This document shows positions 27,216 through 42,618 of a DNA stretch of 64,000 nucleotides, one piece after another. Numbering within the stretch: position 1 is the first letter of the stretch; the number at the start of each line of letters is the position of its first letter. A program made the position numbers and the translations under genes. Below the pieces are notes generated by a model that had not been told where the DNA came from, did no database searches, and saw only the letters and a list, made by a program, of their open reading frames with translations. The stretch covers positions 1 through 64,000 of the forward strand of contig LNEY01000019.1 of NCBI GenBank assembly GCA_001464195.1. Direction: 5' to 3'. Origin of the DNA: Burkholderiales bacterium Ga0077547. Lineage in GTDB: Bacteria; Pseudomonadota; Gammaproteobacteria; Burkholderiales; Burkholderiaceae_C.

Positions 27216-27311
27216 CGATGAGCAAATTCGAATTCCTAGAGTGCACTGACGAGAGCTTACTTTGGTTCGATGGATTGGAGCGGCCGCATTTCCTGCAGAT
27301 ACCATCGCGGC

Positions 27312-28469
27312 ATGCTGCCTGCAGTCTCGCCCCGCAACGTTGCTGTCGTGCACGAATGGCTGGTCGACTACGCGGGCTCGGAGCGGGTGCTGGAGCAAAT
27401 CCTTTCGATCTATCCAGACGCGACGCTTTACCTGCTGATCGACCGGATGGAGCCTGCCCTACGAGCGCGCTTCAGGAGCCAGTGCACCGTCACCTCGTTT
27501 CTTGATCGTTGGCCGTGCATCGAGCGCTACTTCACCCAATGCCTGCCGTTGATGCCCTTTGCAATGCAGCAATTCGACCTCAGCGGTCACGACCTGATCA
27601 TTTCCAGCAGCCACTGCGTGGCCAAGGGAGTGATCGTTCCCCCCGATGCGCTGCATCTCTGCTACTGCCATTCGCCGATGCGCTACGTTTGGGATATGCA
27701 GGCAACTTACCTTGCACAGGAAGGGCTTGACCGCGGCGTGATGGGCTGGCTCGCGCGGCACTTCTTTCATCGCTTGAGGGTTTGGGACGCCGCCAGCCAC
27801 CATGGGGTGGATCATTTCGCAGCCAACTCCGACTTCGTACGGCGCCGCATCCTCAAGTGCTATCGGCGAGCGGCGAATGTCATCCACCCGCCGGTGGCGG
27901 TGGATGTCGAGCCGCTCGCAACCGTTGCGCGCGATCCCCGGCACTGCGTCACCCTCGGCCGCTTGCTGGGCTACAAGAACGTCGCACTGATGATCGAAGC
28001 ATTCCGGCTGCTGCCCGACTGGAAGCTCACTGTCGCCGGTGACGGCCCCCAGCGGAATGCACTTCAGACGAGGGCACCATCCAACGTGCAGTTTCTGGGC
28101 GCCGTGTCAGAAGCAGACAAGCAGCGTCTGCTGCAGTTAGCCAGCATGTTCGTCTTCGCTGCGGTCGAGGACTTCGGAATTGCCCCGGCCGAATCCCTCG
28201 CCGCTGGTACGCCTGTGGTGGCGTTGGCCCGTGGCGGTGTGCTGGACTATCTGCGTCACGGCGACAACGCGTGGCTCTTCGATGAGCCGACGCCCGAAGC
28301 GCTGGCCCAGGCCATCCGATCGGCGTCTGACAATTGGCCAGATGATGTCGCGGACCGCTGCAGACGCAGTGTTGCAGGGCTCTCAGAAGCATGCTTTCGA
28401 ACCAGCTTTTCAACCTGGGTCGCCGAGAAATGGGCTGAGTGGCAACGCGCGCCCAACCCACTGCCTTGA
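27312..28469 (+). CDS. Family 4 glycosyltransferase
   Basis: Cytoplasmic GT-B-fold sugar transferase of 385 residues. It begins VAVVHEWLVDYAGSERVLEQIL, close to the start of WbaZ-type mannosyltransferases, and has the LCYCHSPMRYVWDM segment. The C-terminal donor-binding region has GRLLGYKNVALMIEAFRLLPDWKLTVAGDGP and EDFGIAPAESLAAGTPVVALARGG, with the catalytic EX7E pattern. It is the first of two plus-strand genes, 26 nt before the next, and divergent from tfpX. Probably adds a hexose to the lipid-linked repeat unit; donor and acceptor are unknown. Confidence 0.88.
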   Translation: MLPAVSPRNVAVVHEWLVDYAGSERVLEQILSIYPDATLYLLIDRMEPALRARFRSQCTVTSFLDRWPCIERYFTQCLPLMPFAMQQFDLSGHDLIISSSHCVAKGVIVPPDALHLCYCHSPMRYVWDMQATYLAQEGLDRGVMGWLARHFFHRLRVWDAASHHGVDHFAANSDFVRRRILKCYRRAANVIHPPVAVDVEPLATVARDPRHCVTLGRLLGYKNVALMIEAFRLLPDWKLTVAGDGPQRNALQTRAPSNVQFLGAVSEADKQRLLQLASMFVFAAVEDFGIAPAESLAAGTPVVALARGGVLDYLRHGDNAWLFDEPTPEALAQAIRSASDNWPDDVADRCRRSVAGLSEACFRTSFSTWVAEKWAEWQRAPNPLP

Positions 28470-28495
28470 TGCGGTGGGCGGTCGCACCGTAAGCC

Positions 28496-29677
28496 ATGCA
28501 CGTGCTCATCGTCAGCGAAATGTCGCCCCCGTACGCCATGGGCGGTGGCGAGAAGCGGTATGCGATTCTGGCGAGGGAGTTGGTCGCGAAGGGGCATCAG
28601 GTCACCTGGCTGTCCATGCGCCAGAAAGACAGTGCCGACGCTGAAGAATTTGACGGCGCGCGCCACCTGCATGCGGGCCCCCGGATCATGCAACCCCCGC
28701 TGCGATCGTTCGGTGCCAAGCTGCGATTCATGCTCAGTGTCATCGTGCATCTGGCGCGTCATCGGCCCGATGTGGTCGACTGCCAGACTTACGCGCCGCT
28801 GCCGGCGGCATGGCTCATCTGCAAGCTCAGGGGCATTCCGTTGGTCGCCACCATTCACGACACATCGACGGCGTACTCGAGCAAACCAGCTGCCGATCAA
28901 TGGATGTCGGCATGGGATGGTTGGCTTGCCGGTTTCGTCGAGCGCCGTCTTTACCGCCTGAGTTACAGCCGCGTTCTGACGGTGAGCGATGCCGTGAAGA
29001 GCGCGCTTGTGCAGCGCATGGGCCTGGCGCCATCCTCGATTTCAGTCGTGCCGAATGGAATCGACATCAAGGCCATCGATGCCATCGCGCCGCACCCCAG
29101 CACGACTGATCTGATCTTTGTCGGGCGCATGGTTCCGCACAAGCACCCCGAAGTCTTTCTTGAAGTCGCTGCTTTACTCAGTGCCGCACGCAAGAGCCGA
29201 GGACTCCAGCCGCTGAAGCTGCGGATGATCGGCGGCGGACCTGTTGCGGACGCGATTCGGGCGCAGGCCGAAGCCGTTGGCGTGTCACATCAACTCGAGT
29301 GGCTTGGTGAACTGGAAAGCCACGCCGATGTGATTGCACATATCAAGGCGGCAAAGGTGCTGGTGCTGCCGTCGACCCGAGAGGGTTTCGGGCTTGTTCT
29401 TGCGGAGGCCATGGCGTGCTGCACGGCCTTTGCCGCATACGGCATCGCGCCAGTCGCCGAAACAGTCGGGCCTGTACTGGCCGACTGTTTGGCAGCGCCC
29501 GCGGATCTGCGTCACTTGGCCAGCGTCGTGGCACTTCTCATTGACAACGAGGACTTGCGCTCGCAGCGAGTTACCTTGGGGAATATCCGGGTGCGCGAAC
29601 AGTTTGGTGCCGACAACTTTGCGCGCGCGACCGTGGGCGTTTACCAACTCGCCATCGGCGTTGGCGGCACGGCTTGA
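28496..29677 (+). CDS. Family 4 glycosyltransferase
   Basis: GT-B glycosyltransferase of 393 residues. It shows MHVLIVSEMSPPYAMGGGEKRYAILARELVAKGHQV at the N-terminus with the Gly-rich acceptor-side loop, VVPNGIDIKAID, LIFVGRMVPHKHPEVFLE, and the donor-site REGFGLVLAEAMACCTAFAAYG (EX7E). It follows the preceding glycosyltransferase gene by 26 nt and ends convergently with the minus-strand cluster. The 122-nt convergent gap (29678-29799) shows no strong terminator. Specificity cannot be assigned. Confidence 0.88.
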   Translation: MHVLIVSEMSPPYAMGGGEKRYAILARELVAKGHQVTWLSMRQKDSADAEEFDGARHLHAGPRIMQPPLRSFGAKLRFMLSVIVHLARHRPDVVDCQTYAPLPAAWLICKLRGIPLVATIHDTSTAYSSKPAADQWMSAWDGWLAGFVERRLYRLSYSRVLTVSDAVKSALVQRMGLAPSSISVVPNGIDIKAIDAIAPHPSTTDLIFVGRMVPHKHPEVFLEVAALLSAARKSRGLQPLKLRMIGGGPVADAIRAQAEAVGVSHQLEWLGELESHADVIAHIKAAKVLVLPSTREGFGLVLAEAMACCTAFAAYGIAPVAETVGPVLADCLAAPADLRHLASVVALLIDNEDLRSQRVTLGNIRVREQFGADNFARATVGVYQLAIGVGGTA

Positions 29678-29799
29678 TGCCTTGTTGGGTTGATCGCGCT
29701 CAACGGTTACGCGCTGGCGATCCAGAAACCGCGGCACCAGCTTCACGATCGCTGCAGCGCTGCACCTGAGTCGATCCCCGCAAACTGCATCGACTCCGC

Positions 29800-30696
29800 T
29801 CACGTATCAGCGGGACGGGAAGCTGGCTTTGGATAAAAGTCACGTACCCGTCGGAGCCCATAGCGATATCCAGAGTATCGAATCAGGTGAAGCCACAGCA
29901 TCCCATGCAAAAGCAGCAGGACGCGTTTGTCCTTCACGTGCTGCTGGGCAAAGCCGGCACGCACGATGTCGTAGTGCAGGAGACGACGCCCCGTCCCGGA
30001 ACCCATCGAGATCGAGCCCGGATGTGACCGAAACAGCGCCAAGGGTTGCTTGACGAAGGCGAACTTTGGGTAGACCTTGGCTGTCAGCAAGAACAACAGC
30101 AAATCGTTACCTATCGCGTGCATGCTGAAGTCGCTGCCGATCGCGTTGGGAATGTCCAACCACAGGTTGCGCAACAGGTCGCTGGTTCGGAACAACGCGC
30201 ATCCGGGAGAGCACGGGAAAGGCCCATTCAGCAAGGCACCCCGTACGAAGGTGCTTGTTGGATGGATGCCTGCACTCAGGGAGTCAAAGTCGACGGGAGC
30301 GTCTTGCGGCATTGCTCCGTGCTCAAAGACGCGAGCCGCGGAGTAGGCGAAACCGACGTCCGCTGACTTCAAGTAAGGTACGCAGGCACTCAGAAACTCA
30401 GGCTCGATCAAATCGTCTGACCACAAGATCTTGGAGTACACCCCCTGAGCACGTTGGGCGCAAGCGATCCAGTTGCGCACCGGGCCGATATTGCTGTCGT
30501 TGCGGAAGGCCCGAATCCGCGAGTCCGTTGCCGCCAACGACTGAATCTTCTCCCAAGTGCCGTCCGTGCTCGCGTTGTCGACAACGACCACTTCAACCGC
30601 TTCGTAAGTCTGAGCCAGCGCCGAACCTATCGTATCTTCGATCAGGTCCCATCGGTTGTAGACGGGGATGAGAATACTGACGAGTTCTGCGTTCAA
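29800..30696 (-). CDS. Family 2 glycosyltransferase (WbaV position)
   Basis: GT-A-fold inverting glycosyltransferase, 298 residues, beginning LVSILIPVYNRWDLIEDTIGSALAQTYEAVEVVVVDNASTDGTW with the nucleotide-binding Asp (VDNAS) and the DxD-like LWSDDLIEPEF. A TTG at 30696 is used: its TTGA overlaps the flippase stop and no ATG lies near. It occupies the place that wbaV, the dideoxyhexosyl transferase, holds after wzx in Salmonella, so transfer of the 3,6-dideoxyhexose branch is a reasonable but untested guess. Confidence 0.85.
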   Translation of the reverse strand: MNAELVSILIPVYNRWDLIEDTIGSALAQTYEAVEVVVVDNASTDGTWEKIQSLAATDSRIRAFRNDSNIGPVRNWIACAQRAQGVYSKILWSDDLIEPEFLSACVPYLKSADVGFAYSAARVFEHGAMPQDAPVDFDSLSAGIHPTSTFVRGALLNGPFPCSPGCALFRTSDLLRNLWLDIPNAIGSDFSMHAIGNDLLLFLLTAKVYPKFAFVKQPLALFRSHPGSISMGSGTGRRLLHYDIVRAGFAQQHVKDKRVLLLLHGMLWLHLIRYSGYRYGLRRVRDFYPKPASRPADT

Positions 30697-31997
30697 TTTG
30701 TCCTCGCCTGAAGCAAGCGCCGCACCTGGATCGGACCCAGGACCGAGAAGAAACCCAGAGAGACAAGAGTGCCCAGCAGGATCCCCGTCAGGCCGTAGTC
30801 CAACGTCACCGTGAAAAAGTAGGTGGCGGGAATGTTGACAAGGCATGCCGCAACGGCCGACAGTAGTTGCACGCTGGTGTTGCCAACTCCGTTGAGGAAG
30901 TAGGCGAAGATGTTCGACCAGCAACCCAGCACGGTTGTCAACGCAAACAAGGCATACACGGAAGGGCTGCCCACTTGATCGGCGCCGAGCCACTGAATGA
31001 TCAGCCACGGGCAAACCCAGGCCAGCGCGGCGCAGCCAACAACCAGGATCAGCATTGCCTGCATCAAGCGCAGCAGGCTGCCGCGTATCCATTGCAACTC
31101 ACCTTGCTCATGCGCCTGGGTGAAGCTTGACCACAGCGTCGACATCACCAGGGTGTGAACCATCGTGATCACTGAAAAAATCTTGAATCCGGCCTCATAG
31201 ACCACGACGCTCTCCGGGCCCAGCAGCAAGCTGGACATCACGCGCGATGTCGTGAAGATCACCAAGGCTGCCAGTTGGATGACGAACAGACGCAGGCCGA
31301 AACCGACAATTGCGTACCGGATGCGGTGATCGATCGATGAAAGCCGAGGCCGGTATTGGGGATACAAGACATAGAAGCGAGCGATGAGCCAGGCGTTCGC
31401 GCCGACGATCGCCATCAGATACAAGGCTGCGACTTCGGACATACGATCGAGCGAAAGCCACTGCGCAAGCAGCAGCAGTGCCGCAAACATGACGTTCGAT
31501 AGCAGTGCGAAGAGCGAGACGGCCGACGCCTTTTCCAGTGCCGCAAAGGCACTCTGGACGTAACCCATGGCGAAAGCAATGCAAGCGCCTGCGGCAACAA
31601 GCCAGAGGGCAGCGCCGGGATCGACCCCGCCGAAGACGTGGACAGCCAGCCAATGACGCGCAGGCGTCAGCCACAAGACACTCGCCGTCAAGAGGAACAG
31701 GGCAAAAGAAATGAGGCTCACGTAGAGCCAGCCCGTGGTGATGGCGCGGCGCACCCGCTCATGGTCCTGCAGAGCCGCCGCGCGAGCGATCTCGTTGCGC
31801 GCGCCAGCAGACACACCCAGATCCAACAGCGTGAGCCACTGGAATACCGACAGCAGCACCAGCCACACACCAAAGGACTGCTTGCTCAGCAACTGCAACA
31901 TCAGCGGCATCGTTGCGAAGGTGGCTGCGGCCGCGCCCAGAGCACAGGCCAGCCCCAGCATCGACTGCCGGACCACAACGCGGGTTCTTGCAGTCAT
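30693..31997 (-). CDS. wzx: Wzx-type oligosaccharide flippase
   Basis: Integral membrane protein of 434 residues with about twelve hydrophobic helices, of the MATE/MVF-like polysaccharide transporter superfamily. It opens with VRQSMLGLACALGAAAATFATMPLMLQLLSKQSFGVWLVLLSVFQWLTLLDLGVSAGARNEIARA, the family-typical start in which a polar DLG motif follows the second helix. It would flip undecaprenyl-linked O-units to the periplasm. The ATG at 31997 gives a complete first helix. Order tyv–wzx–GT2 on the same strand supports the assignment; wzx genes are poorly conserved in sequence. Confidence 0.85.
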   Translation of the reverse strand: MTARTRVVVRQSMLGLACALGAAAATFATMPLMLQLLSKQSFGVWLVLLSVFQWLTLLDLGVSAGARNEIARAAALQDHERVRRAITTGWLYVSLISFALFLLTASVLWLTPARHWLAVHVFGGVDPGAALWLVAAGACIAFAMGYVQSAFAALEKASAVSLFALLSNVMFAALLLLAQWLSLDRMSEVAALYLMAIVGANAWLIARFYVLYPQYRPRLSSIDHRIRYAIVGFGLRLFVIQLAALVIFTTSRVMSSLLLGPESVVVYEAGFKIFSVITMVHTLVMSTLWSSFTQAHEQGELQWIRGSLLRLMQAMLILVVGCAALAWVCPWLIIQWLGADQVGSPSVYALFALTTVLGCWSNIFAYFLNGVGNTSVQLLSAVAACLVNIPATYFFTVTLDYGLTGILLGTLVSLGFFSVLGPIQVRRLLQARTN

Positions 31998-32020
31998 CAA
32001 TGGCGCGGATGTGGCTGGGC

Positions 32021-33055
32021 TCAACTGGGCCTTCGCATCATGCTGTCTACCCACTGGAGCATCCTCAGAACGCCTTCGGCAGCGCTGACCTTGGGTGTCC
32101 ATCCCGTGACACCGTGCACCTTGGCGATGTCGGCTACAAAGACGCGTTGATCGCTGCTGCGCGGCGGCAGATGTTCGTACGACAACGGCGCGCCAATCGC
32201 CGACTCAAGCAACTCGAACAACTCCAGCAGCGACAAACTGTTGGCCATGCTGCCACCGACGTTGAACGACTGACCAGCCGCCTCATCGATGTGCTGCGCC
32301 ATGGAGAAGTACAGATCGATCATGTCTTGCGCATGCAGCACATCTCGCACCTGCTTGCCGTTGCCAGAGATCGAAAAAGGCTCCTTGCGCAACCCGGCGC
32401 GCGTTTCGGCGGCCATCTGGCAGAACCAACCGATCCAGCCCTGATCGAACGTCGCGAATTGCCTGCCGCCGTACATGGACGAATGTCTGAAAACCGCCGT
32501 CCGCAGCCCGAAGATGCGGTGGTAATCCAGAAGATACTGGTCGGCTGCGCCCTTTGAGCAGCCATAGGGCGAATGCAAGTCCAGTGGAACGTTTTCTGAA
32601 AACCCGCGCGGATGGTCGATGCAGATGTACCGCGTCGCAGACTCCTCGTAGCGGTATTGCTCGAGATCGCCATACACCTTGTTGGTGGATGAATAGATCA
32701 CCCCGGCCTCAGGCGCGAAGTGGCGCACGGCTTCGAGCAGGTTGAGCATCCCCAGCGCATTGGTCTCGAAGTCCAGCCGCGGGTTGGCGATCGACGTGGT
32801 CATGGCCACTTGGCCTGCTAGATGGAACACCATCTGAGGACGAAACGATTGGACGACGCGATTCACGTCGTTCGGGTTACGAATGTCGCCGTGGATGAAG
32901 TCGAACTGCCCCGCACCTCGCAGCCAGGTGAGATTGAGTTGGGAACCCTGGCGAGACAAGTTGTCGAACACGCAAAGCTCAAAGCCTTGCGCAACCGCGT
33001 GGGCAGCCAGGTTGCTTCCCAGGAATCCGCAGCCCCCTGTGATCAAGAGTTTCAC
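32021..33055 (-). CDS. tyv: CDP-paratose 2-epimerase
   Basis: Short-chain dehydrogenase-fold enzyme that epimerises CDP-paratose to CDP-tyvelose using bound NAD+. The 344-residue protein closely follows my memory of Salmonella RfbE along its whole length: KLLITGGCGFLGSNLAAHA (NAD-binding), VFDNLSRQGSQLNLTWL, HLAGQVAMTTSI, YSSTNKVYGDLEQY, SPYGCSKGAADQYLLDY (Tyr-x3-Lys), FRHSSMYGGRQFATFDQGWIGWF and SGNGKQVRDVLHAQDMI. A GTG start at 33055 overlaps the preceding stop (GTGA). It is the last dedicated step of the dideoxyhexose pathway here. Confidence 0.93.
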   Translation of the reverse strand: MKLLITGGCGFLGSNLAAHAVAQGFELCVFDNLSRQGSQLNLTWLRGAGQFDFIHGDIRNPNDVNRVVQSFRPQMVFHLAGQVAMTTSIANPRLDFETNALGMLNLLEAVRHFAPEAGVIYSSTNKVYGDLEQYRYEESATRYICIDHPRGFSENVPLDLHSPYGCSKGAADQYLLDYHRIFGLRTAVFRHSSMYGGRQFATFDQGWIGWFCQMAAETRAGLRKEPFSISGNGKQVRDVLHAQDMIDLYFSMAQHIDEAAGQSFNVGGSMANSLSLLELFELLESAIGAPLSYEHLPPRSSDQRVFVADIAKVHGVTGWTPKVSAAEGVLRMLQWVDSMMRRPS

Positions 33056-33936
33056 TTGTTGAATTCCTTCCAAAGTGTGTCGCGCAGGCCAGAAATGATG
33101 TCGTACCGTGGTGCCCAGCCCATGGCGCGCAGGCGGCTGGTATCAGCGATGTTCAACATGGCCTCGCCGGGGCGGTAATCCAAAGCGCCAAAGTCGAGTG
33201 CCGTGCTTGAGCCGGTCAGCAGATGAACGGCCTCGACGAACTCGCGCACCGAATGTGCAGAACCCGAGCCGACATCGATGGAATCCACCGCGCCCAAGCT
33301 CCCGATGTGGTGCAGCACGGTGTCGTAGGCCCGCACGACATCATCGATGTGGACGAAGTCGCGGCGCTGCGCGCCAGCGGTCAGTGCCAGCCGGGGTTCA
33401 TTGGCATGGCACGCATGCAGCACACGCGTCGTGAATTTTGAGAGAGCGTCTCCCGGGCCGTACATGTGCTGCAAACGCATGTCTGCGAACCGCAAGCGCT
33501 CGGGATGCAGTTTGGCCAGCCGCACGCCCCATTCGCTGAACTGCTGCTTGCTCAGCGCGTAAAGGCTGACCTCGGGTTCAAGTACGGTGTCGGTGTTCAG
33601 CATTGTCACCGGCTGTTCAGTGCCGGCAAGGATAGCCTGGAGCAACATGACGCCCAGGCGAACGTTCGCGTCCAGCAGTTGCAAGGGCGTCTCTCCATCG
33701 CGGCCGTAAGCACAAGCGGTATGCACGACGACCTGCGGACGGGCGACCTCGAACGCCTCAAGTACCTCGGCGTCGCTGCTGAATGTCAACGGGATGAAGT
33801 CGGCAGCCTGATCATTGGGTCCGCACCGGCGAGAACTGCTCCGCACAAGCGCGAACACATCGTGGCCCGCTGCGGCCCAATGCCTGGCAAGCACGCCGCC
33901 CAAGAAGCCCGTTGCACCGGTGAGGAAGATGCGCAC
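33052..33936 (-). CDS. CDP-paratose (or CDP-abequose) synthase
   Basis: NAD(P)H-dependent 4-reductase of the extended short-chain dehydrogenase family, 294 residues. It reduces CDP-3,6-dideoxy-4-ketoglucose. Visible are MRIFLTGATGFLGGVLARHW, VVVHTACAYGRDGETPLQLLDANV, SLYALSKQQFSEW (Tyr-x3-Lys), LQHMYGPGDALSKFTTRV, QRRDFVHIDDVVRAYD and VGSGSAHSVREFVE. The layout parallels RfbS (paratose synthase) and RfbJ (abequose synthase). The downstream 2-epimerase requires paratose, so the RfbS role is favoured. Located directly after ddhC, as in Salmonella. Confidence 0.85.
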   Translation of the reverse strand: MRIFLTGATGFLGGVLARHWAAAGHDVFALVRSSSRRCGPNDQAADFIPLTFSSDAEVLEAFEVARPQVVVHTACAYGRDGETPLQLLDANVRLGVMLLQAILAGTEQPVTMLNTDTVLEPEVSLYALSKQQFSEWGVRLAKLHPERLRFADMRLQHMYGPGDALSKFTTRVLHACHANEPRLALTAGAQRRDFVHIDDVVRAYDTVLHHIGSLGAVDSIDVGSGSAHSVREFVEAVHLLTGSSTALDFGALDYRPGEAMLNIADTSRLRAMGWAPRYDIISGLRDTLWKEFNK

Positions 33937-33954
33937 TGTTGCGTCAGAAATGGC

Positions 33955-35328
33955 TTAGAAGCCGAGGCCGAAAAATTCTTCCAGCTTTTGAACGATGTAC
34001 GCGAGGTGCGGTTCCTGCAACCCCGGGTAGACGCCCAGCCAGAAGGTCTGGTTCATCACGATGTCGGTGTGGGTCAACGCGCCGCTGACGCGGAAGTTCT
34101 GGCCGCTCATGTAAGGCTGACGCGTCAGGTTTCCGGCAAACAGCAGGCGCGTGCCGATCTTGTGATCGTCCAGATAGGTCAGCAGGTCCACGCGATTGAC
34201 ACCCGACGTCCCTTTCAGCACCACCGGGAAGCCGAACCACGAGGGATCGCTACCCGGCGTGGCCGTGGGCAGATGCAGGAACTCAGCGCAGCTCTGCAAT
34301 CGGGCGTGCAGGTATGCGAAATTGGCCCGACGCGCTGCGATGAATTCGTCCAGGCGATCGAGTTGCGCCAGCGCACAGGCGGCCTGCATGTCGCTGATCT
34401 TCAGGTTGTAGCCGAGGTGGCTGTAGGTGTACTTGTGGTCGTAGCCCTGCGGCAGATCGCCCAGCTTCCAGCAGAAGCGCTTGTTGCAGGTGTTGTCCTT
34501 TCCCGGCGGACAAAAACAGTCACGGCCCCAATCGCGGAACGACTCGGCGATCAGCTTCAGCTCGGGGTTGTTGGTAAACACAGCCCCGCCCTCGCCCATC
34601 GTGATGTGGTGGGCAGGGTAGAAGCTCAGCGTCGCGATGTCGCCGAAGGTGCCGACCATTTGGCCCTGGTAAGTGGCACCCAGCGCATCGCAGCAGTCTT
34701 CCACCAACCAGAGACCGTACTTCCTGCAAAGCGCAGTCACCCGCTCCACATGGAAGGGGTTACCCAGGCTGTGGGCCAGCATGATGGCCTTGGTCTTGGG
34801 CGTGATGGCAGCTTCGATCAGGCTGGCGTCAATGTTGTGTGTGGCCAGCTCGATGTCGACGAACACGGGCACGGCGCCAAACTGCAAGATCGGGTTGACG
34901 GTCGTGGGAAAGCCTGCGGCCACGCCGATGACCTCGTCACCCGGCCGTATGGCGCGGTCACCCAGCCGCGGCGAGGTCAGCGTTGAAAACGCAACCAAAT
35001 TGGCCGAAGAGCCCGAGTTTACGGTGATCAGGTGCTTGACGCCCAAGAAGCGGGCCAGCCGTTCCTCGAAGGCGGCATTGAAACGGCCCGTCGTCAACCA
35101 ACCGTCGAGGCTGGCTTCGACCATCAGCTTCAACTCCTGGGCCCCGATGACCTTGCCGGACACAGGCACAGGCGTGACACCTGGAATGAATGGGTTCGGT
35201 GCATATTGCACGTCGGCGTACTGCTGCACCAGGTCAACGATCTGCTCGCGCAACTTGGCCTGCGCCATCGTTTCGCCGGACACACCAGCGCTGACCGGCT
35301 GGAGGACGATGGTCTTGACTTCGCTCAT
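33955..35328 (-). CDS. rfbH: CDP-4-dehydro-6-deoxyglucose 3-dehydrase (E1)
   Basis: PMP-dependent iron–sulfur dehydrase that removes the C3 hydroxyl of CDP-4-keto-6-deoxyglucose; also called DdhC. The 457-residue protein has the aminotransferase fold. The PLP lysine is replaced by His in [15 protein letters not shown] (His240/241), the hallmark that separates E1 from ordinary sugar aminotransferases. Cysteines for the [2Fe-2S] cluster lie in [17 protein letters not shown] (271, 273, 281). The ATG at 35328 overlaps the rfbG stop. Works with RfbI, which is encoded four genes upstream in transcription. Confidence 0.95.
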
Positions 35329-36401
35329 GACGGACTCGATTCGAAGGCTTCGCTGTATGCGGAAATCTGCTGCAGGCACAGGGCATGGACGTCGTCTTGC
35401 GCCAGCCAAGCCTGATGCCATTGAACAATCTGGTCCAAGGTCTGCGCCAGGTGCCACCGCGGCCGCCAGCCCAGGCGTGCATTGGCCTTGCTGATGTCCA
35501 GCTTCAGGCAATTGGCTTCGTGCGGGAGAGCACGACCATCAAGCTGCCAGCGGGCGCCGTTCCCCCAGAGCTCGGCCAGACGTTCGACGATCCATTGCAC
35601 CGGCCGTGCATCCTCATCGCAAGGCCCGAAATTGAAGGCTTCGGCGTTGGCCTGACCTTCACGTGCGAGGCTTTGCGCCAGCGTCAGGTAGCCCGACAGC
35701 GGCTCGAGAACATGCTGCCAGGGCCTTGTGGCGTTCGGTCTGCGAACCACTACGGGCTCGCCGCACTCGAACGCCCGCAGGACGTCCGGAACCAACCGGT
35801 CAAGCGCCCAGTCGCCACCGCCGACGACATTGCCCGCGCGGGCGGACGCAACGCCTGTGCCAGCGGGCGCCAGAAAGGAACGGCGATAGGCACTCGTTAC
35901 CAATTCGGCGCAGCCCTTGCTGTTGCTGTAGGGGTCGTGCCCGCCCATTGGCTCGTGTTCGCGATAGCCCCACACCCACTCCTGATTCTCGTAACACTTG
36001 TCGGTGGTCACACAGACCACGGCGCGAACGCTCGGGTTCTGACGCACAGCCTCCAGCAAATGAACCGTGCCCATGACATTGGTGGCGTAGGTGTCCACGG
36101 GCTCGGCATACGACAGGCGCACGAGAGGCTGAGCGGCCATGTGGATCACGATGTCGGGGCTGACCTCAGCCACGGCGCGAGCCACTGCCGCTGCATCTCG
36201 AACGTCGCCGATGATGCTGTGCATTCCCTGCGCCACGCGGGCTTCGACAAACAGGCTGGGCACCGTCGGAGGCTCCAGCGCGAAGCCATGGACCTCCGCA
36301 CCCATGCGCTGCAGCCACAGGCTCAGCCAGCTGCCCTTGAAGCCGGTGTGACCGGTGAGCAGAACGCGCTGCTTGCGCCAGAACCCGGGGTCGACGGTCA
36401 T
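35325..36401 (-). CDS. rfbG: CDP-glucose 4,6-dehydratase
   Basis: NAD+-dependent dehydratase converting CDP-glucose to CDP-4-keto-6-deoxyglucose; also called DdhB. The 358-residue protein has [33 protein letters not shown] ([10 protein letters not shown] signature), [65 protein letters not shown] with the catalytic Tyr-x3-Lys, and [20 protein letters not shown]. The ATG at 36401 lies 4 nt after the rfbF stop. Confidence 0.95.
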
Positions 36402-36405
36402 CGGC

Positions 36406-37179
36406 TCAGTCCCACTTTTTCCACGGGGCATTTCCCGAGGCCCACAGTTCCTCAAGCAGTACCTTGTCCCGCAGCGTGTCCATCGCTTGCCAGAAACCGT
36501 GATGTTCGAAAGCCATGAGTTGCCCATCCTTGGCCAGGCGCATTAATGGCTCCTGTTCCCAGACGCTGCTGTCGCCGTCGATGTACCGCAACACGTCGGG
36601 CTTCAGCACGAAGAAGCCACCGTTGATCATCGCGCCATCACCCCTCGGCTTCTCCTTAAAGTTCAGCACCTGGCGCTGGCGAATGTCCAGCGCACCGAAT
36701 CGCCCTGGTGGATAGGCCGATGTGAGCGTCGCGGCCTTCCCGTGCTCGCGATGAAAGGCGATCGATTCGCCAATGTCTATGTCTCCGACACCATCGCCGT
36801 ACGTGAAGCAAAAGTCTTCTTCGTTCTCGACATACTGGGCCACTCGCAGCAATCGGCCCCCCGTCATCGATCGGTCGCCAGTGTCTACCAGGGTCACCGA
36901 CCACGGCTCGGCACGCTTGCTGTGCACTTGCATTTGGTTGTTGCGCATGTCAAAGGTCACGTCTGACATGTGCAGGAAATAGTTGGCGAAGTACTCCTTG
37001 ATGACATAGCCCTTGTAGCCGCAGCAGATCACGAAATCGTGGATGCCATGCGCTGCATAGACCTTCATGATGTGCCACAGGATGGGTTTGCCCCCGATCT
37101 CCACCATCGGCTTCGGACGCGTGGCGGTTTCCTCGCTGAGCCGCGTACCTAATCCACCGGCCAGAATGACTGCTTTCAT
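36406..37179 (-). CDS. rfbF: Glucose-1-phosphate cytidylyltransferase
   Basis: Makes CDP-glucose from CTP and glucose-1-phosphate, the first committed step; also called DdhA. The 257-residue protein has the nucleotidyltransferase start [39 protein letters not shown], then [36 protein letters not shown] and [19 protein letters not shown], all typical of the CTP-using enzyme rather than RmlA. It is 36 nt downstream of rfbI and just upstream of rfbG. Confidence 0.96.
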
Positions 37180-37215
37180 GGGGTTGACTCTTTCGGGCTC
37201 ATGGCCATCAGATGG

Positions 37216-38205
37216 TCACGCCGAACTGACGAACGCATCGAAGTGAAAGCGGCGTGGTGGCAGGCCTGCGGCGAGCAATGTGCGCCGCGCCGCATTCACC
37301 ATGACCTCGGAACCGCATGCATAAATGTGTGTGTTGGGGTCAGCCCGTGTTCGCGACAAGAACACATCCTGTACGTACCCGCGTTCGCCGTGCCAGCCTG
37401 CCCCCGCCCGCGAAAGCACCGGCACGTACTCAAGCGCCGGATAAATGTCGGAAGGATCGCAGTACAGGTCCTGCGGAACGCGCCCACCCCAGTACAAGGC
37501 GACTGAGGCAGGCCGGCTCCCATCGGGCATGGCATGGAGTTGCGCTAGCATCGAGGTGATGGGAGCGATCCCCGTGCCCGTGGCGAGGAACACCACGTCG
37601 TGCCCTGAAACCTCTCTCAGAAAGAACGTGCCACTCGGTCCCCTGAAGCGAAGCAGGTCATTGACCTTGGCTTCGCCAAACCAGTAGGCGCTGAGAACGC
37701 CGCCAGGGACTTCTCGAACATGCAGTTCGATGCGCCCCAGGCGGTCAGGGTCGCCGGCCAGGGAATAGCTGCGCCTCGCCCCACTCGGACCCGTGAGTGA
37801 GATGGATTGCCCCGCCACGAAGTTGAAGCCGGTCGTCGGTGGCAGCCGAAGCTCGACACGCATGACATCAGACGCCACGCGCTGCAATGCATCGATGCGT
37901 GCGGGCAGCGTTTTCTCAGAGATGCCTGCCAATGCGCCAAGGTCTTCGATGTCCAGAACAAGGCTGGACATGGCTTCATGGGTGCAGGTGAGGACCCAGC
38001 CGGCAGCTTCTTCTTCTGCGGTCAGCGCCACCGCATCGCGCAGCGGCCTTGTCTGGCCAGCCAAGCACATGGCGCGACAGGCGCCGCACCTTCCCGTGCG
38101 GCAGCTGTGTTCAAGAAGCACCCCGGCAGCGATAGCGCCTTCGAGAATGGAGGCACCAGCAGCGGTATCGAATGAGACACCGGTCGATAAGCGTACTGTG
38201 TTCAC
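37216..38205 (-). CDS. rfbI: CDP-6-deoxy-delta-3,4-glucoseen reductase (E3)
   Basis: Electron-transfer flavoprotein that passes electrons from NADH through FAD and a plant-type [2Fe-2S] cluster to RfbH; also called DdhD. The 329-residue protein has an N-terminal ferredoxin domain with LEHSCRTGRCGACRAMCLAG plus a later Cys (WVLTC). An FAD domain (SYSLAGDP) and an NAD domain (FLATGTGIAPITSML, IYACGSEVMVNAARRTL) follow. The GTG at 38205 is preferred over the TTG at 38214 because GAGGA lies nine bases before it and its GTGA overlaps an upstream stop. It begins the dideoxyhexose unit. Confidence 0.93.
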   Translation of the reverse strand: MNTVRLSTGVSFDTAAGASILEGAIAAGVLLEHSCRTGRCGACRAMCLAGQTRPLRDAVALTAEEEAAGWVLTCTHEAMSSLVLDIEDLGALAGISEKTLPARIDALQRVASDVMRVELRLPPTTGFNFVAGQSISLTGPSGARRSYSLAGDPDRLGRIELHVREVPGGVLSAYWFGEAKVNDLLRFRGPSGTFFLREVSGHDVVFLATGTGIAPITSMLAQLHAMPDGSRPASVALYWGGRVPQDLYCDPSDIYPALEYVPVLSRAGAGWHGERGYVQDVFLSRTRADPNTHIYACGSEVMVNAARRTLLAAGLPPRRFHFDAFVSSA

Positions 38206-38524
38206 GTCGCCCAATCCTCGCGAGGCAACCCTTGCCGAGCAAGCAGTGCAGACCGAAACCCATCGCTGTCAGTCTTCAGCAATTCAGGCTCCTTGTCTTT
38301 GACGCGCAGAAGCTGCTGTGTGAGCGGTCGACTCTCATCAACTTTAACAGCGGCCGGCGCAAGATGGTCGCTTTGGAAAGGGCTTCTTTCCACTGCACGG
38401 CCACCACGATGCAGACATCGCTGAGATTGCAAGACCGAAGTGCGGCAGCCAGGACTGCCGCGCCCCCAGGCGCCTTCTGGTCAGGGAAACATCGCTTCAA
38501 TTTCCTTGCCTCGGTGAGCAGCAC
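38202..38524 (-). pseudogene. Small unidentified ORF with apparent frameshift
   Basis: Between the family 4 glycosyltransferase gene and rfbI lie two overlapping frames that make sense only when joined. The first, from a GTG at 38524, reads MLLTEARKLKRCFPDQ and on to VVAVQWKEALSKA. The second continues DHLAPAAVKVDESRPLTQQ to PREDWAT and stops in a GTGA overlap with rfbI. One missing base near 38366-38374 would fuse them into about 107 residues. I do not recognise the product. The small spacing to both neighbours suggests a gene of the operon rather than a spacer; codon use in the second half is less GC-biased than in the flanking genes. Confidence 0.4.
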
Positions 38525-38544
38525 CTTTGTCCGGCTCGGGCGCG

Positions 38545-39729
38545 TCAGTCGAGGACAGCCGCGTAGGCGGCGAGATAGCCCGACAACATCGCCTCGGCGC
38601 TGAAGCGGCGTGCCGCCTCCCGCGCAGCGGCACTCAGAGGTTCCAGGGAGTCGCGCCGGGCGATGATTTCACTGAGGATCTCCGGCAGGCGGGATCGATC
38701 ATCGGGATCGTACAGCCAGCCGCAATCGTCGCGCACCAGTTCCGCCAGGCCACCGCGCCGCGCCGCGACGACCGGCAGGCCCTGCGCCATGGCCTCAATC
38801 GCGACCAGCCCCATCGCCTCCTTGCACAGGGACGGCACGACCAGAACGTCGAGCTGGGCCAGAAAGTCCTCGGCCCGAACACGACCCATCCAGCGGATGT
38901 CGGATCGCGATGCAGTGCGGGCCCTGAGAGACGCCTCGCAGCCCGCGTCGCCCGTGCCGCCGATGCGCAGTTCCGCGGCGCCGGCCGGCAAGGCGAGGAA
39001 AGCGTCGATCAGGCGATCCAGGCCCTTGTTCGGCGCGAGCGTGCCAAGGAAACCCGCGCGCAGCGGCTCGCCGGGCGTGCGCGGCGCAGGCTCGCCTGCA
39101 GACGTGCGAAAGCCGTTGTAGACGACCGAGGCCGCCGCGCTGCTGAACAGACCCTCATCCCGGTGCCGATCAAGGATGTAGTGGCTCACGCCGATCACCG
39201 CGCCCACGTGCCGCGCCAGTCCACGCCGCGGCGCCGTGGCGATCCGGCAGCGTAGGCAGGGCCGCACACAGTTACGGTCGTTCCGGAACATCGTGCTGTA
39301 CGGGCAAAGCAGGTAGTGGTCGTGCAGCGTGTGGACGAGCGGCAGGCCCCTGTCGGCAGCGGCCTCCCATATCGCCGCGGAGAAGCCGGCCAGGTTGTGC
39401 GTGTTCACCACCTGCGGGCGGATCCTGTCGAGGAGCGCGCCGACACTGCGCGCCATGGTGGCGTTGTTCGAGTCACGCGCGTGCCACACCACCTTGGCCG
39501 GGAAGCCCGCGCGGGCAACGGGAAACGGCCAGTAGAGGTTGCGCAGAGGAACGCGGTGCACGCGAACGCCGTTCAGTTCGTCCTCAGGCGGATCCTCCGA
39601 CTTGCCAAGCGTGATCACGTCCACGCCGTGGCCCTGTGCCGCAAGGCCTTCGGCCACCTGCTGCGCAACGCGCTCGGCGCCGCCATGGGTGTGCGGCGAG
39701 TAGAGCGAACTGATCAGCACCAGCTTCAA
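38545..39729 (-). CDS. Family 4 glycosyltransferase
   Basis: GT-B glycosyltransferase of 394 residues. It begins LVLISSLYSPHTHGGAERVAQQVAEGLAAQGHGV and has a Cys-rich insertion, RNDRNCVRPCLRCRIATAPRRG (about 149-170). The donor site has GFLGTLAPNKGLDRLIDAFLALP and KEAMGLVAIEAMAQGLPVVAARRGGLAELV (EX7E). The four spaced cysteines occur in a subset of such enzymes and may bind metal. Its start overlaps the preceding family 2 gene by 4 nt. This two-gene pair appears more GC-rich than the genes at 27-33 kb, suggesting a different origin. Confidence 0.88.
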   Translation of the reverse strand: MKLVLISSLYSPHTHGGAERVAQQVAEGLAAQGHGVDVITLGKSEDPPEDELNGVRVHRVPLRNLYWPFPVARAGFPAKVVWHARDSNNATMARSVGALLDRIRPQVVNTHNLAGFSAAIWEAAADRGLPLVHTLHDHYLLCPYSTMFRNDRNCVRPCLRCRIATAPRRGLARHVGAVIGVSHYILDRHRDEGLFSSAAASVVYNGFRTSAGEPAPRTPGEPLRAGFLGTLAPNKGLDRLIDAFLALPAGAAELRIGGTGDAGCEASLRARTASRSDIRWMGRVRAEDFLAQLDVLVVPSLCKEAMGLVAIEAMAQGLPVVAARRGGLAELVRDDCGWLYDPDDRSRLPEILSEIIARRDSLEPLSAAAREAARRFSAEAMLSGYLAAYAAVLD

Positions 39730-40610
39730 CGCGCGCTTTCCTCCGGGCCCGCCGTTTGCGCAACGGAATACCGGGGCTTACGGAACGTGAGTACACGGTA
39801 GAGGTCGGCAAGGCGACGTGCGTTGCGCTCGCCTACCAGCGCGCGCAGCACGGTGTACGCGTGCGCGAGGAGCGACCAGTAGGCCCAGGCGAGGGGCGGC
39901 GGACGCAATCCGTGCAGACGGAGCGCACGCAGCGTCTCTTGCATGCCGAGGATGAAGTTCCCGGGCGACGTGGTGGTTCCGCCCCAGCCCACGCCGACGG
40001 TCAGCGCATGCACGAAAAGCGCGTCGGCGTTCGCCAGCTCACGCAGCAGGAATTCGTAGTCCGCCGAGAGGCGGAAGCTGTCGTCAAACCCGCCGTACTG
40101 GTCGAAGAGCGTGCGGTGGTGCATGAGGCCCGGGTGCGGCAGGCAGACGTGCGAGCGGAAGCGTTCGCGGCAGGCCTCCCAGGGCTCGCCCAGTTCGTCG
40201 ATGACACGACCGGTCGCGTCCAGCTGGCGCAACCTGCTGTAGACAACGCGGTGGCGCGGCGCGGCGCGGCGCAGTGCCGGAGCGAGGTGTGCGAGCGCGT
40301 CGGCGTCCCACAGCCAGTCGTCGGCGCCGAGGAAGGCAATCCACTCGCCTCTCGCCAGCGGCAGCGCCTTGTTCCAGGCATCGTAGATGCCTCGGTCGGC
40401 GCCCGAACGCCACTCGGTGACCACGTCGGAGGCCGCCTGCAACAGATCCACCGTGCCGTCGGTGGATCCGCCGTCCATGACGATGACCTCGAAATCACGG
40501 AAGGACTGCGCGCGCAAGCTGTCCAGGCAACGGGGCAGGCAGTGCGCCACGTTGCGCGTCGCGACAACGAGACTGATCAACGGCGCAGCTGAGGGATAAA
40601 GGTACGACAT
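39726..40610 (-). CDS. Family 2 glycosyltransferase
   Basis: GT-A glycosyltransferase of 294 residues. It has LISLVVATRNVAHCLPRCLDSLRAQSFRDFEVIVMDGGSTDGTVDLL, then DRGIYDAWNKALPLARGEWIAFLGADDWLWD, the form seen in WcaA/WcaE-like enzymes with the DxD-like ADDW. LSADYEFLLRELA is the region expected to carry the catalytic base. The ATG at 40610 is chosen over a GTG five codons upstream. It overlaps the following family 4 gene by 4 nt and follows the broken membrane gene by 55 nt. Confidence 0.87.
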   Translation of the reverse strand: MSYLYPSAAPLISLVVATRNVAHCLPRCLDSLRAQSFRDFEVIVMDGGSTDGTVDLLQAASDVVTEWRSGADRGIYDAWNKALPLARGEWIAFLGADDWLWDADALAHLAPALRRAAPRHRVVYSRLRQLDATGRVIDELGEPWEACRERFRSHVCLPHPGLMHHRTLFDQYGGFDDSFRLSADYEFLLRELANADALFVHALTVGVGWGGTTTSPGNFILGMQETLRALRLHGLRPPPLAWAYWSLLAHAYTVLRALVGERNARRLADLYRVLTFRKPRYSVAQTAGPEESAR

Positions 40611-40665
40611 CAGAGCATCTCGCACACAGTTGCTGTTCGCTTCGACGCTGCATCACCGCGAATGA

Positions 40666-42618
40666 TCATTCCTCGCTCCACGGCATCTGGTAGCGGCCCG
40701 GAGGCTTGTCGCACTGAACCACGAACTTACCAGCGCGTATGTCCGCCACGCTGCCAATGGAGCGATGGTTGAGCGCGCGAAAGTACTTGTAGGTGACATC
40801 GCCAGGGCCCCAGATGCTGATCAGCATGTCGATGCTGGGATACCACCGACTGGCCGTTCCATCGAACTCTCGCGTCACACCGCTGCCCGGCGGAAAGAAC
40901 CTCGGGCACCGTTGTTCGATCGCTTCAAAAACGTCTGACCATTGCAATGCCTGAGGCGGCTTCGCGATGGCGGCAATGCGGTCAGCATCCGAGTAACTCA
41001 TCGGGCAGAACCAGAACCCCCGCTCCGGTTCCTTCGGCACTGTGCCTGGCTGAGAGGTCACCGCCGCGCCCGCGCTGACACGAGGCAGGGTTGACCGCAG
41101 CACCATGCACGGCTCACCGTTCAGGGTCAGCCCGTAAGTCGACAGCGACTGGCCCAGGAGCTTGCGCAGTTCCAAATCGGGCTGGTTGTGCTTGTCCGAC
41201 CAGCCGCCCGGAATCGGGATGACCAGCAGCTTCGGAAGCTCACTCGACAGCAGTTCCACGACCGACGCGTACTCACGCGCCGCCGGTGAAATGTCGCGCT
41301 GCCCGACCAGCTGTGCCCATCGCGAGTCGGGATGGAACCGTGGCACCAGGATCGAGTAGGCGTTGACGCTCGCCATGATGAAGACCGCCGGGCGGTGACG
41401 CAGCGCGGCCTCCTCGATGTCAATGCCTGTCCCGCTGACCCAGTCTGCTCTGCCCCATACATCAGGTTTGTAGCTGCTGGCGAGCGCTACCGCCTGGAGG
41501 CCGCCGATCAGTACCAGCGTCGCCCAGCGAAAAGGCTTCGTCCCCGGCAGGCCTCGCCAGGCCAGCATGATCAATGGGCCGAGCAGCAGCAGCGCCGAAA
41601 GGAAGTAGCGACCATTGCCGATGACGAAGGTCCACAGATAGAGGGTGAGCCAGAAGGCCATCAACAGCCGCCACGTTTCAGCAGTCAGCCGACCCTTCAG
41701 CGAACCAAAGACAGCACCAATGAACAGCATGGCAATCAGAAACGCCGGACGCAGATCGGGCGCCATGAATTCCACGTACATGAACGCCGACGGGTCGGCC
41801 ATCAGGAAGGGCCGGAGCAGCCACTCGAGAAACACGTCTGGCGTGAAGCGGTCCATGTGATCGGGGCAGGAGGTTCAGCGGCCCATGAACGGGTACAGCG
41901 GGTGGCCCATGTTCGTCCACAGCTGCACCCCCCAAGGTGCGTACGCCACCAGAAAGCCGACGGCAGCACCGCCCCACAGGCGCAATCCTCTGTGCAGAGA
42001 CAGGTACGGTGACCGGGTCTCGAATCCCCACATCAGCATCATCGGTACGAAAAGCGCGTTGGACAATTTGAAAGCCACGGACACCCCGAACAGCGCGCCC
42101 ATCGCCAGCAGCCTTCGTTGGCTGGCATCAGGCTTCAGTGCGATGGCCACGGACCAGAGCAACGGCGTCGCTGCGAGCACATCGTTCGCAGTCGTTTGCA
42201 GTGAGGCCCACAACACGATGCTCATGACGCCGAGCACGCAGGCAGCCACTCGCTCGGCAGCCGCCTCGGCAGCGCCGCCCTCCTGGGGCAACATGCGGTA
42301 TGCCGCCAGCCACACGGGTGGCATCACGCAAGCCGCCTGTACCGCAGCCCATGCCGCAGCAACCCAGGCACCTTGGGCGTCCAGCAAGGCCATGCGGTAG
42401 ACGGGCCAGTAGAGGTACGGGTACTGGTAGGTCTGCCCACTGGCGGCCACCACGTCCAGGTGCCAGCGCGGGTGCTCGGCCGTCATGCCCAGGTAGACCT
42501 GGTGGTTGATGGCGTCCCAGCTCCACCCCAGGTGGCCGTTCATCAGGGGGAGGCTGGCCGCCGCCATCGCAGCCATCAAAGTGACTACAAGCAGTTCAAA
42601 CCAGTGGCGGCGACTCAT
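40666..42618 (-). pseudogene. Polytopic membrane glycan protein interrupted by in-frame TGA
   Basis: Two open frames in the same phase are separated only by a TGA (41877-41875) and six codons. The first part (42618-41878, 247 residues) is a membrane protein with about six helices beginning MSRRHWFELLVVTLMAAMAA and ending GHPLYPFMGR. The second (ATG at 41856) resumes DRFTPDVFLEWLLRPFLMADPSAFMYVEF and has about five helices and a soluble tail of 250 residues. Membrane glycosyltransferases of the DUF2029/GtrC-like type often have NPLYPFxN followed by FxWLLRPF, so the two parts look like one 650-residue protein. A TGG-to-TGA change would explain it. Its start overlaps the next gene by 4 nt. Confidence 0.7.

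What the first reader, a model, noticed from the sequence alone, without database searches (positions are those of the whole stretch)
29800..38205. Complete CDP-tyvelose pathway in the Salmonella group D gene order in a betaproteobacterium
On the minus strand the order is ddhD–ddhA–ddhB–ddhC–paratose synthase–paratose 2-epimerase–wzx–GT2. As I remember it, this matches rfbI-F-G-H-S-E-X-V of the Salmonella D1 O-antigen locus gene for gene. All signature residues are present (His in place of Lys in RfbH, ferredoxin Cys in RfbI, NAD motifs). 3,6-dideoxyhexoses are best known from enteric bacteria, so conserved order here suggests transfer of a functional block including its flippase and transferase. 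It predicts tyvelose (or paratose) on the surface of this organism.
Basis: partly seen in the sequence, partly recalled or inferred. Interest (0 to 1): 0.75.

Follow-up and report, generated by a model that had tools for sequence, protein, structure and literature searches.

The report
Tyvelose gene cassette in pilin-sugar locus
A Burkholderiales bacterium carries a full set of genes for tyvelose, a rare sugar best known from Salmonella, as a plug-in block with its own flippase, set between a gene for a hair-like surface fibre and the gene for an enzyme that may attach sugars to it.

Summary
Eight minus-strand genes at 29800-38205 are ddhD-ddhA-ddhB-ddhC-prt-tyvE-wzx-GT2, the order read in a Salmonella group-D-type locus. 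The 32021 product is a CDP-tyvelose 2-epimerase (64% to Salmonella; 20 of 20 published functional residues kept); the 33052 product is a diverged paratose synthase. The six sugar genes keep this order in 7 of 7 other loci with a close tyvE, to which the window is closer than to Salmonella. Flippase and transferase are not the Salmonella pair; their one close match each is in Roseateles koreensis, which has the same eight genes. A same-genus genome has the same locus with 68 bp in place of 8,890 bp and another flippase that the window lacks: a cassette plus flippase swap. The locus runs from a type IV pilin gene to a PglL-type protein O-oligosaccharyltransferase, so I predict that tyvelose caps a pilin glycan. 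CDP-tyvelose synthesis: about 0.9 likely; pilin as acceptor: about 0.5. LPS or exopolysaccharide is not excluded: the genome has three other Wzy_C proteins and three initiating transferases. The order is reported as ancient; the setting is the new part.

The parts
29657..38546 (.). Block (8,890 bp) holding the eight genes; 68 bp in the same-genus genome G009
   Evidence: blastn to G009: window 27243-29656 = 7233-9652 (85%), window 38547-40589 = 9721-11763 (88%); GC 0.609 vs 0.648 and 0.660 in flanks
37216..38205 (-). ddhD (rfbI-like): ferredoxin + FAD/NAD reductase, E3 partner of ddhC
   Evidence: PF00111, PF00970, PF00175; 36% to Salmonella, 46-53% to L012-L018; Fer2 cysteines
36406..37179 (-). 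ddhA (rfbF): glucose-1-phosphate cytidylyltransferase
   Evidence: TIGR02623 469 bits, cut-off 300; 75% to Salmonella
35325..36401 (-). ddhB (rfbG): CDP-glucose 4,6-dehydratase
   Evidence: TIGR02622 501 bits, cut-off 278; 60% to Salmonella
33955..35328 (-). ddhC (rfbH): CDP-4-keto-6-deoxyglucose 3-dehydrase (E1)
   Evidence: NF011936 742 bits, cut-off 423; 3bcx E 1.6e-209; His stretch and Fe-S cysteines
33052..33936 (-). prt (rfbS-like): CDP-paratose synthase, SDR
   Evidence: 30% / 167 bits to Salmonella Prt; 9-row clade 98/95, with Salmonella Prt and one other row on one side of a 90/84 branch; YxxxK and GxxGFLG
32021..33055 (-). tyvE (rfbE): CDP-paratose/tyvelose 2-epimerase
   Evidence: 1orr 507 bits, 9rl0 501 bits; 64% to Salmonella; 20 of 20 functional residues
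30693..31976 (-). wzx-type flippase lying in the block
   Evidence: PF01943; 59% to Roseateles koreensis L015; 20%, 38 bits to Salmonella Wzx
29800..30696 (-). GT2 glycosyltransferase, candidate tyvelosyltransferase
   Evidence: PF00535; 59% to L015; homologue of 128 bits or more in 7 of 15 tyvE+ loci and 0 of 39 ddhC loci without tyvE
28496..29677 (+). GT4 glycosyltransferase, left border of the block
   Evidence: PF13439, PF00534; 81% in G009
27270..28469 (+). GT4 glycosyltransferase
   Evidence: PF00534; 88% in G009
26488..27398 (-). tfpZ-like type IV pilin accessory gene, read in two frames (26488-27246 and 27021-27398): frame-broken in this assembly
   Evidence: NF041437 128 bits, below its cut-off of 200, residues 73-251; a single 252-aa ORF in G009
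24632..26491 (-). pglL-type protein O-oligosaccharyltransferase
   Evidence: PglL_A PF15864 41 bits (cut-off 25), Wzy_C, Wzy_C_2; no NCBIfam hit
38545..39729 (-). GT4 glycosyltransferase, right border of the block
   Evidence: PF13692; 87% in G009
39726..40625 (-). GT2 glycosyltransferase
   Evidence: PF00535; 86% in G009
40666..41856 (-). protein of no family, hydrophobic by my reading, present in G009; a polymerase or a GT-C enzyme is not excluded
   Evidence: no Pfam or NCBIfam hit; 43% in G009
41875..42618 (-). protein of no family, hydrophobic by my reading, present in G009; a polymerase or a GT-C enzyme is not excluded
   Evidence: no Pfam or NCBIfam hit; 51% in G009
42615..43832 (-). 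GT2, polyprenyl-phosphate sugar transferase-like
   Evidence: PF00535; TIGR04182 121 bits, below cut-off 325
44141..44623 (-). type IV pilin gene, predicted acceptor
   Evidence: PF00114 59 bits, PF07963

Best explanation
The block is a self-contained 'terminal sugar' cassette. DdhA makes CDP-glucose, DdhB CDP-4-keto-6-deoxyglucose, DdhC with DdhD removes the 3-OH, Prt reduces the 4-keto group to CDP-paratose and TyvE inverts C-2 to give CDP-tyvelose (inferred from orthology and conserved residues). The GT2 at 29800 caps an undecaprenyl-linked oligosaccharide, built by the flanking GT4/GT2 enzymes, with tyvelose (inferred). The cassette's own Wzx, in place of the one the sister locus has, flips the capped unit because the terminal dideoxyhexose decides flippase preference (inferred; shown in Yersinia pseudotuberculosis by PMC6436433). 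The PglL-type enzyme at one end of the locus moves it to the type IV pilin encoded at the other end (inferred from position and domain). The cassette entered as one 8.9-kb piece between two convergent glycosyltransferase genes (block difference shown; direction inferred).
For: Pathway. Same six-gene order in 7 of 7 other close tyvE loci of the genome collection and in Salmonella. Block edges: in G009 the four glycosyltransferase genes nearest the block are 81-88% identical and 68 bp stand in place of 8,890 bp; GC of the block 0.609 vs 0.648/0.660. Flippase swap: G009 has a Wzx and a FkbM methyltransferase between tfpZ and the first GT4, the window has 52 bp there, and that Wzx has no good match in the window's genome (best 23%, 28.8 bits). 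Same eight genes, wzx and GT2 at 59%, in Roseateles koreensis. Pilin setting: pilin, TfpZ-like and PglL with PglL_A; pilA and pglL in one locus in 6 of the 7 same-genus genomes read, the seventh (G001) showing pglL alone on 4.2 kb; PMC3643930 (passages read) built PglL_A to separate PglL from WaaL and found 21 of 31 pglL genes next to or near a pilin gene.
Against: The acceptor is not shown. The genome has three other Wzy_C proteins and three Bac_transf initiating transferases, none of the latter in the window (WecA-type enzymes not searched). Two proteins of the locus have no family and could be a polymerase. TfpZ is no marker of glycosylation: Pseudomonas aeruginosa pilins of the TfpZ group were found unmodified (PMC11841053, passages), and tfpZ is frame-broken in this assembly. 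pilA and pglL lie in one locus in this genus also without these glycosyltransferases, so the cassette's place may be incidental. No pilin or pglL match was found in L012-L018 in the DNA held, and Roseateles has the eight genes beside export and Wzz genes. Only G009 shows the empty site, so loss there rather than gain here is possible. The GT2/tyvE threshold was set after seeing the table, and the loci are not independent.
Confidence: 0.5

Rival explanations
1. The cassette feeds LPS O-antigen or an exopolysaccharide; its place between pilin and pglL is incidental. Another ligase or polymerase handles the capped unit.
For: Three other Wzy_C proteins without PglL_A and three initiating transferases in the genome; Roseateles koreensis keeps the same eight genes beside Poly_export and Wzz genes; enteric precedents are O-antigens (PMC3715488, passages); two familyless proteins in the locus could include a polymerase.
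Against: No Wzz-family hit and no Wzy_C protein other than PglL among the 18 proteins of the locus scanned; glycosyltransferases lie between pilA and pglL in G009 as well; the only Wzy_C protein in the locus carries PglL_A.
Confidence: 0.35
2. Recent transfer of the whole block from an enteric bacterium.
For: Identical order of eight functions; lower GC than flanks; 14 of 14 other same-genus genomes searched lack a close tyvE, several of them incomplete; the ddhA tree puts Salmonella in one 13-row starred set with the window (98).
Against: Window genes are closer to Burkholderiales (tyvE 72-76%, ddhC 76-85%) than to Salmonella (64%, 69%); Wzx and GT2 unlike Salmonella's; prt only 30% alike; in the ddhB tree Salmonella falls outside the 11-row set (96) that holds the window. 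AU tests do not reject Salmonella beside the Burkholderiales ddhC rows (p 0.66 and 0.27), so an old shared source stays open.
Confidence: 0.04
3. TyvE acts on another CDP-sugar, for instance CDP-glucose to CDP-mannose as the Thermodesulfatator enzyme does, or the end product is CDP-paratose or CDP-abequose.
For: The T. atlanticus enzyme, about as similar to the window protein (501 bits) as Salmonella's, epimerises CDP-glucose although its pocket residues are conserved (PMC7851689, sections 6 and 9 read). Prt is only 30% identical to Salmonella Prt.
Against: Full ddhDABC-prt precede tyvE in one run of genes, as in the Salmonella tyvelose locus; Prt groups with Salmonella Prt.
Confidence: 0.07
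4. The locus is decaying and makes no glycan.
For: tfpZ is split over two frames (compared with G009).
Against: All eight cassette genes and the flanking glycosyltransferases are open, with catalytic residues kept in the enzymes checked; TfpY-like proteins are described as aiding pilus assembly, apart from the glycosyltransferases TfpO and TfpW (PMC11841053, passages); a single frame break in a draft assembly may be an error.
Confidence: 0.08

Closest known systems
Salmonella enterica group D1-type O-antigen locus (rfb)
   Same: Order ddhD-A-B-C-prt-tyv-wzx-GT2; same predicted nucleotide sugar.
   Different: Wzx and GT2 not the same by the tests made; no rhamnose, mannose or WbaP genes among the neighbours scanned; flanked by pilin and pglL instead.
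Yersinia pseudotuberculosis tyvelose/paratose O-antigen clusters
   Same: Same order reported in PMC3715488; Wzx choice follows the terminal dideoxyhexose (PMC6436433).
   Different: Known from passages only; not fetched or compared by sequence here.
Close tyvE loci of other genomes: Azohydromonas australica, Massilia phosphatilytica, Roseateles koreensis, and four MAGs (two Aquabacterium, one Burkholderiales, one 'Proteobacteria')
   Same: Six-gene core in the same order in 7 of 7; Roseateles has the same wzx and GT2 too.
   Different: No pilin or pglL match near them in the DNA held.
PglL-type pilin O-glycosylation loci of betaproteobacteria (Rhodoferax, Polaromonas, Acidovorax, Methylibium in PMC3643930)
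   Same: Pilin and pglL with the PglL_A motif in one locus.
   Different: Here the locus also holds glycosyltransferases and a dideoxyhexose cassette with its own flippase.
TyvE-like epimerases outside enterics (Thermodesulfatator atlanticus and other marine bacteria, PMC7851689; a putative one in Azospirillum brasilense, PMC4264754, passage)
   Same: Same family and active site (residues compared for T. atlanticus only).
   Different: The characterised activity in T. atlanticus is CDP-glucose/CDP-mannose.

Membership tests
CDP-tyvelose biosynthesis pathway | ddhA, ddhB, ddhC orthologues | tested here: met
   All above NCBIfam equivalog cut-offs
CDP-tyvelose biosynthesis pathway | ddhD-type E3 reductase | tested here: met
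   Domains and cysteines; 36% to Salmonella
CDP-tyvelose biosynthesis pathway | Prt orthologue | tested here: met
   Groups with Salmonella Prt, 90/84; only 30% identity, no equivalog model passed
CDP-tyvelose biosynthesis pathway | TyvE orthologue with catalytic residues | tested here: met
CDP-tyvelose biosynthesis pathway | Product formed | not testable with these tools
   Needs enzyme assay
Salmonella D1-type O-antigen locus | Order ddhDABC-prt-tyv-wzx-GT | tested here: met
Salmonella D1-type O-antigen locus | Orthologous wzx and wbaV | tested here: not met
   Salmonella Wzx lists four of 1,210 ORFs (L072 37%, L013 25%, L078 and L015 weakly), not the window; WbaV matches the window over 101 residues only
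Salmonella D1-type O-antigen locus | rml, man and wbaP genes around | tested here: not met
   No such gene among the 18 proteins scanned from 24632 to 44623: no equivalog cut-off for them reached and no PF02397
PglL pilin O-glycosylation locus | PglL_A motif with Wzy_C | tested here: met
   the three other Wzy_C proteins of the genome lack it
PglL pilin O-glycosylation locus | Type IV pilin gene in the locus | tested here: met
   44141-44623; about 17.6 kb from pglL, not immediately adjacent
PglL pilin O-glycosylation locus | Pilin carries the glycan | not testable with these tools
   Needs glycoproteomics

The most novel reading that the evidence does not exclude
Type IV pili of this bacterium carry an O-linked oligosaccharide capped with tyvelose. 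Terminal-sugar cassettes that bring their own flippase are exchanged between exopolysaccharide, O-antigen and pilin-glycan loci, so that the 'sugar plus flippase' unit is the element of exchange rather than the locus.
Probability: 0.42. Interest if true: 0.68.

Novelty: new variant of a known kind. Interest (0 to 1): 0.5.

Why it matters
It puts a sugar known as an enteric O-antigen marker into a bacterium of another class and, by position, onto pili. If true, it makes the terminal sugar and its flippase a movable unit and gives a natural pair (window and G009 site) for testing whether the terminal dideoxyhexose sets flippase choice. It also shows that prt/tyv genes are not specific to enterics.

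Tried and rejected
Enteric origin: disfavoured as a recent event on identity; the deeper relation is unresolved. The quick ddhC tree put Salmonella outside an 11-row set (99) that holds the window. The AU tests did not reject Salmonella with those 11 rows (p 0.66, the held tree scoring higher) or with the eight tyvE+ rows alone (p 0.27), so I make no claim from that placement. The eight tyvE+ ddhC rows as one clade were not rejected (p 0.58); all 15 tyvE+ rows as one clade were (p 5e-10). The long row L101 was dropped before those tests. The quick ddhA tree puts Salmonella in one 13-row set (98) with the window, the quick ddhB tree does not: the genes disagree. In these two trees eight cassette rows as one clade were not rejected (p 0.71, 0.62); the part-length rows L039 (ddhA) and L018 (ddhB) were dropped. 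The tyvE tree left 11 of 15 inner branches open. No tree was made for ddhD, wzx or GT2, so joint descent of all eight genes is not tested. L018 ddhC did not enter the ddhC tree (match broken).

Of 13 loci, six (L019-L024, 24-27%) were dropped as other epimerases. G160 and G262 (46-47%) form a separate branch and were not counted as tyvE+. G038 tyvE lies in pieces on three contigs and fell under the cut. Of 154 plasmid records with a match only three were at 60% or more (two Azospirillum, one Salmonella); the rest were not followed. Phages gave one 40% match, not followed. No shared word of 10-20 bases was found between the stretches around the two block ends.

Paper searches: dideoxyhexose with betaproteobacteria (none); O-oligosaccharyltransferase with Burkholderiales and pilin (none); tyvelose with pilin (two, unrelated by title, not opened); dideoxyhexose, pilin, glycoprotein, two of three (862, 15 listed; PMC3643930 among them was opened); PglL/TfpZ/pilin glycosylation (26, 15 listed, two opened for passages); two, both already seen; 1,509, 15 listed, none of the 15 holding paratose or tyvelose. 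None showed a tyvelose-bearing pilin in what I saw.

Full report
What is there. The window lies in a 2.84-Mb, 33-contig genome, 88% complete. Its recA is 80-94% identical to those of six of the seven genomes behind the related tyvE loci, the seventh (L017) giving no match. Eight minus-strand genes at 29800-38205 are, in transcription order, ddhD, ddhA, ddhB, ddhC, a short-chain reductase, a tyvE-like epimerase, a Wzx-type flippase and a GT2 glycosyltransferase. With the starts I chose, ddhB/ddhC, prt/tyvE and wzx/GT2 overlap by four bases, as in an operon.

Sugar pathway. ddhA, ddhB and ddhC pass curated equivalog cut-offs. ddhC keeps the histidine in place of the PLP lysine and the C-x57-C-x-C-x7-C pattern. 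The 32021 product is far closer to the two solved CDP-tyvelose 2-epimerases (507 and 501 bits) than to any other solved protein (next 130 bits). Twenty of 20 cofactor, catalytic and substrate-contact residues named in PMC7851689 (sections 6 and 9 read) and PMC13098431 (passages read) are identical. The 33052 product is the weak link: no family model names it, and it is 30% identical to Salmonella CDP-paratose synthase. In a tree of 28 reductases it belongs to a 9-row clade of cassette reductases (98/95), which lies with Salmonella Prt and one other row on one side of a 90/84 branch, away from most other reductases found beside ddhC. The tree is unrooted and two rows are long, so this grouping is less sure than the clade.

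Order and relatives. The same order was read in Salmonella enterica serovar India, with ddhD found by tblastn in an unannotated gap. It is also kept, ddhD to tyvE, in 7 of 7 loci with a close tyvE in the genome collection (L012-L018; in L018 ddhB and ddhC are broken in the assembly). PMC3715488 (passages read) reports the same pattern for Salmonella and Yersinia pseudotuberculosis and calls it ancient. Identities of the window to those seven loci (tyvE 72-76%; ddhC 76-85% where unbroken) exceed those to Salmonella (64%, 69%). Gene trees keep the window with these loci in ddhC, ddhB and ddhA but disagree on Salmonella: outside the window's starred set in ddhC and ddhB, inside it in ddhA; AU tests on ddhC leave it open. 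Of 300 genomes sampled over the order, 39 (own included) hold a ddhC over its cut-off. Close tyvE is rarer: the window and three others (59-64%) of 399 at E 1e-85, plus two at 46-47% and a split copy in G038; over the phylum the window and two of 398. Of 14 other same-genus genomes two have ddhC at 81-85% and none a close tyvE; G012 has ddhD-A-B-C without a prt or close tyvE match in the 20 kb read.

Flippase and transferase. They occupy the same positions, but Salmonella Wzx lists four of 1,210 ORFs: G226 (L072, 37% over 429 aa), Massilia (L013, 25%), L078 and, at 45 bits, the Roseateles relative of the window Wzx; the window itself is not listed, though tblastn gives 20% at 38 bits. So the two are distant relatives at most. 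WbaV matches the window GT2 over 101 residues only. The window Wzx and GT2 have one close relative each, both in Roseateles koreensis (59%), which has the same eight genes in the same order. GT2 homologues of 128 bits or more lie in 7 of 15 tyvE+ loci (G038 counted once) and 0 of 39 ddhC loci without tyvE (Fisher p 3.6e-5). The threshold was set after seeing the table, three of the 39 loci are short contigs, spans differ and the loci are related, so this is a lead to a tyvelosyltransferase, not proof.

The insertion. In the same-genus genome G009 the genes pglL, tfpZ, GT4, GT4 / GT4, GT2, two familyless proteins, GT2, pilA, and on to recA follow one another as in the window, apart from two genes named below. 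The four glycosyltransferases nearest the border are 81-88% identical; the familyless proteins, the outer GT2 and the pilin only 43-68%. The window stretch 29657-38546 (8,890 bp) corresponds to 68 bp there, between aligned flanks of 85% and 88% DNA identity. Between tfpZ and the first GT4, G009 has 2.8 kb coding for another Wzx and an FkbM-type methyltransferase, where the window has 52 bp. That Wzx has no good match in the window's genome as held (23%, 28.8 bits). So the window differs from its sister locus by a sugar cassette plus a flippase exchange. PMC6436433 (abstract and passages read) showed that two Yersinia Wzx proteins discriminate between terminal dideoxyhexoses, the simplest reason for a cassette to bring its flippase. 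Direction (gain here or loss in G009) rests on the lower GC of the block (0.609 against 0.648 and 0.660) and is not settled by one genome.

Where the sugar goes. The locus has a type IV pilin gene at one end and, at the other, a TfpZ-like accessory gene and a Wzy_C protein with the PglL_A motif. PMC3643930 (passages read) designed that motif to pick protein O-oligosaccharyltransferases, not WaaL, and found 21 of 31 such genes next to or near pilin genes, several in betaproteobacteria. In G002, G003, G005, G008 and G010 pilA and pglL stand 2.0-3.4 kb apart, with no match between them to the window's glycosyltransferases. I therefore predict a tyvelose-capped pilin glycan. Against it: three other Wzy_C proteins (none with PglL_A) and three initiating transferases elsewhere in the genome, so an LPS or exopolysaccharide route exists; two proteins of the locus have no family and might polymerise; the same eight genes in Roseateles stand by Poly_export and Wzz genes; TfpZ does not mark glycosylation (PMC11841053, passages) and is frame-broken here.

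Verdict. The pathway and order are confirmed; the enteric-transfer story is not. It is a new variant of a known kind: a known sugar module, in an order already held to be ancient, in a setting for which my searches showed no report. PMC7725333 (passages read) places these sugars primarily in Salmonella and Yersinia; the loci found here widen that.

Noticed in passing
window 26488-27398: tfpZ-like gene is read in two overlapping frames, while G009 has one 252-aa frame (L120:3723-4481); real break or assembly error.
   Followed up: partly
window 50466-52523: One 685-aa frame holds both the beta and alpha parts of succinyl-CoA ligase, apparently a sucC-sucD fusion or a lost stop.
   Followed up: no
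L064-L104, L113-L115: Of 44 loci checked, nearly all ddhC loci of the order, only L113 shows a strong ddhD homologue in the stretch held (L101 a weak one), though ddhC should need an E3 reductase: its source there is unknown.
   Followed up: partly
L056 (Azospirillum oryzae), L103, L104: The reductase between ddhC and tyvE belongs to another group than in the Burkholderiales cassettes and Salmonella: possible replacement of Prt or another product.
   Followed up: partly
L072 (G226) 2956-10360: ddhA-B-C-prt-tyvE-wzx-GT2 whose Wzx is the best match of Salmonella Wzx among 1,210 ORFs (37%).
   Followed up: partly
L055 (NZ_CP022016.1): A 473-kb Salmonella 'plasmid' carries galF and the O-antigen locus, so it may be a mislabelled chromosome piece.
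   Followed up: no
window 45771-48320: FHA-like, PP2C-like and Ser/Thr kinase-like genes (names from my reading, not scanned) stand near pilA and are conserved in the genus.
   Followed up: no
window 54714-56999: About 2.3 kb present here stand against 17 bp in G009.
   Followed up: no
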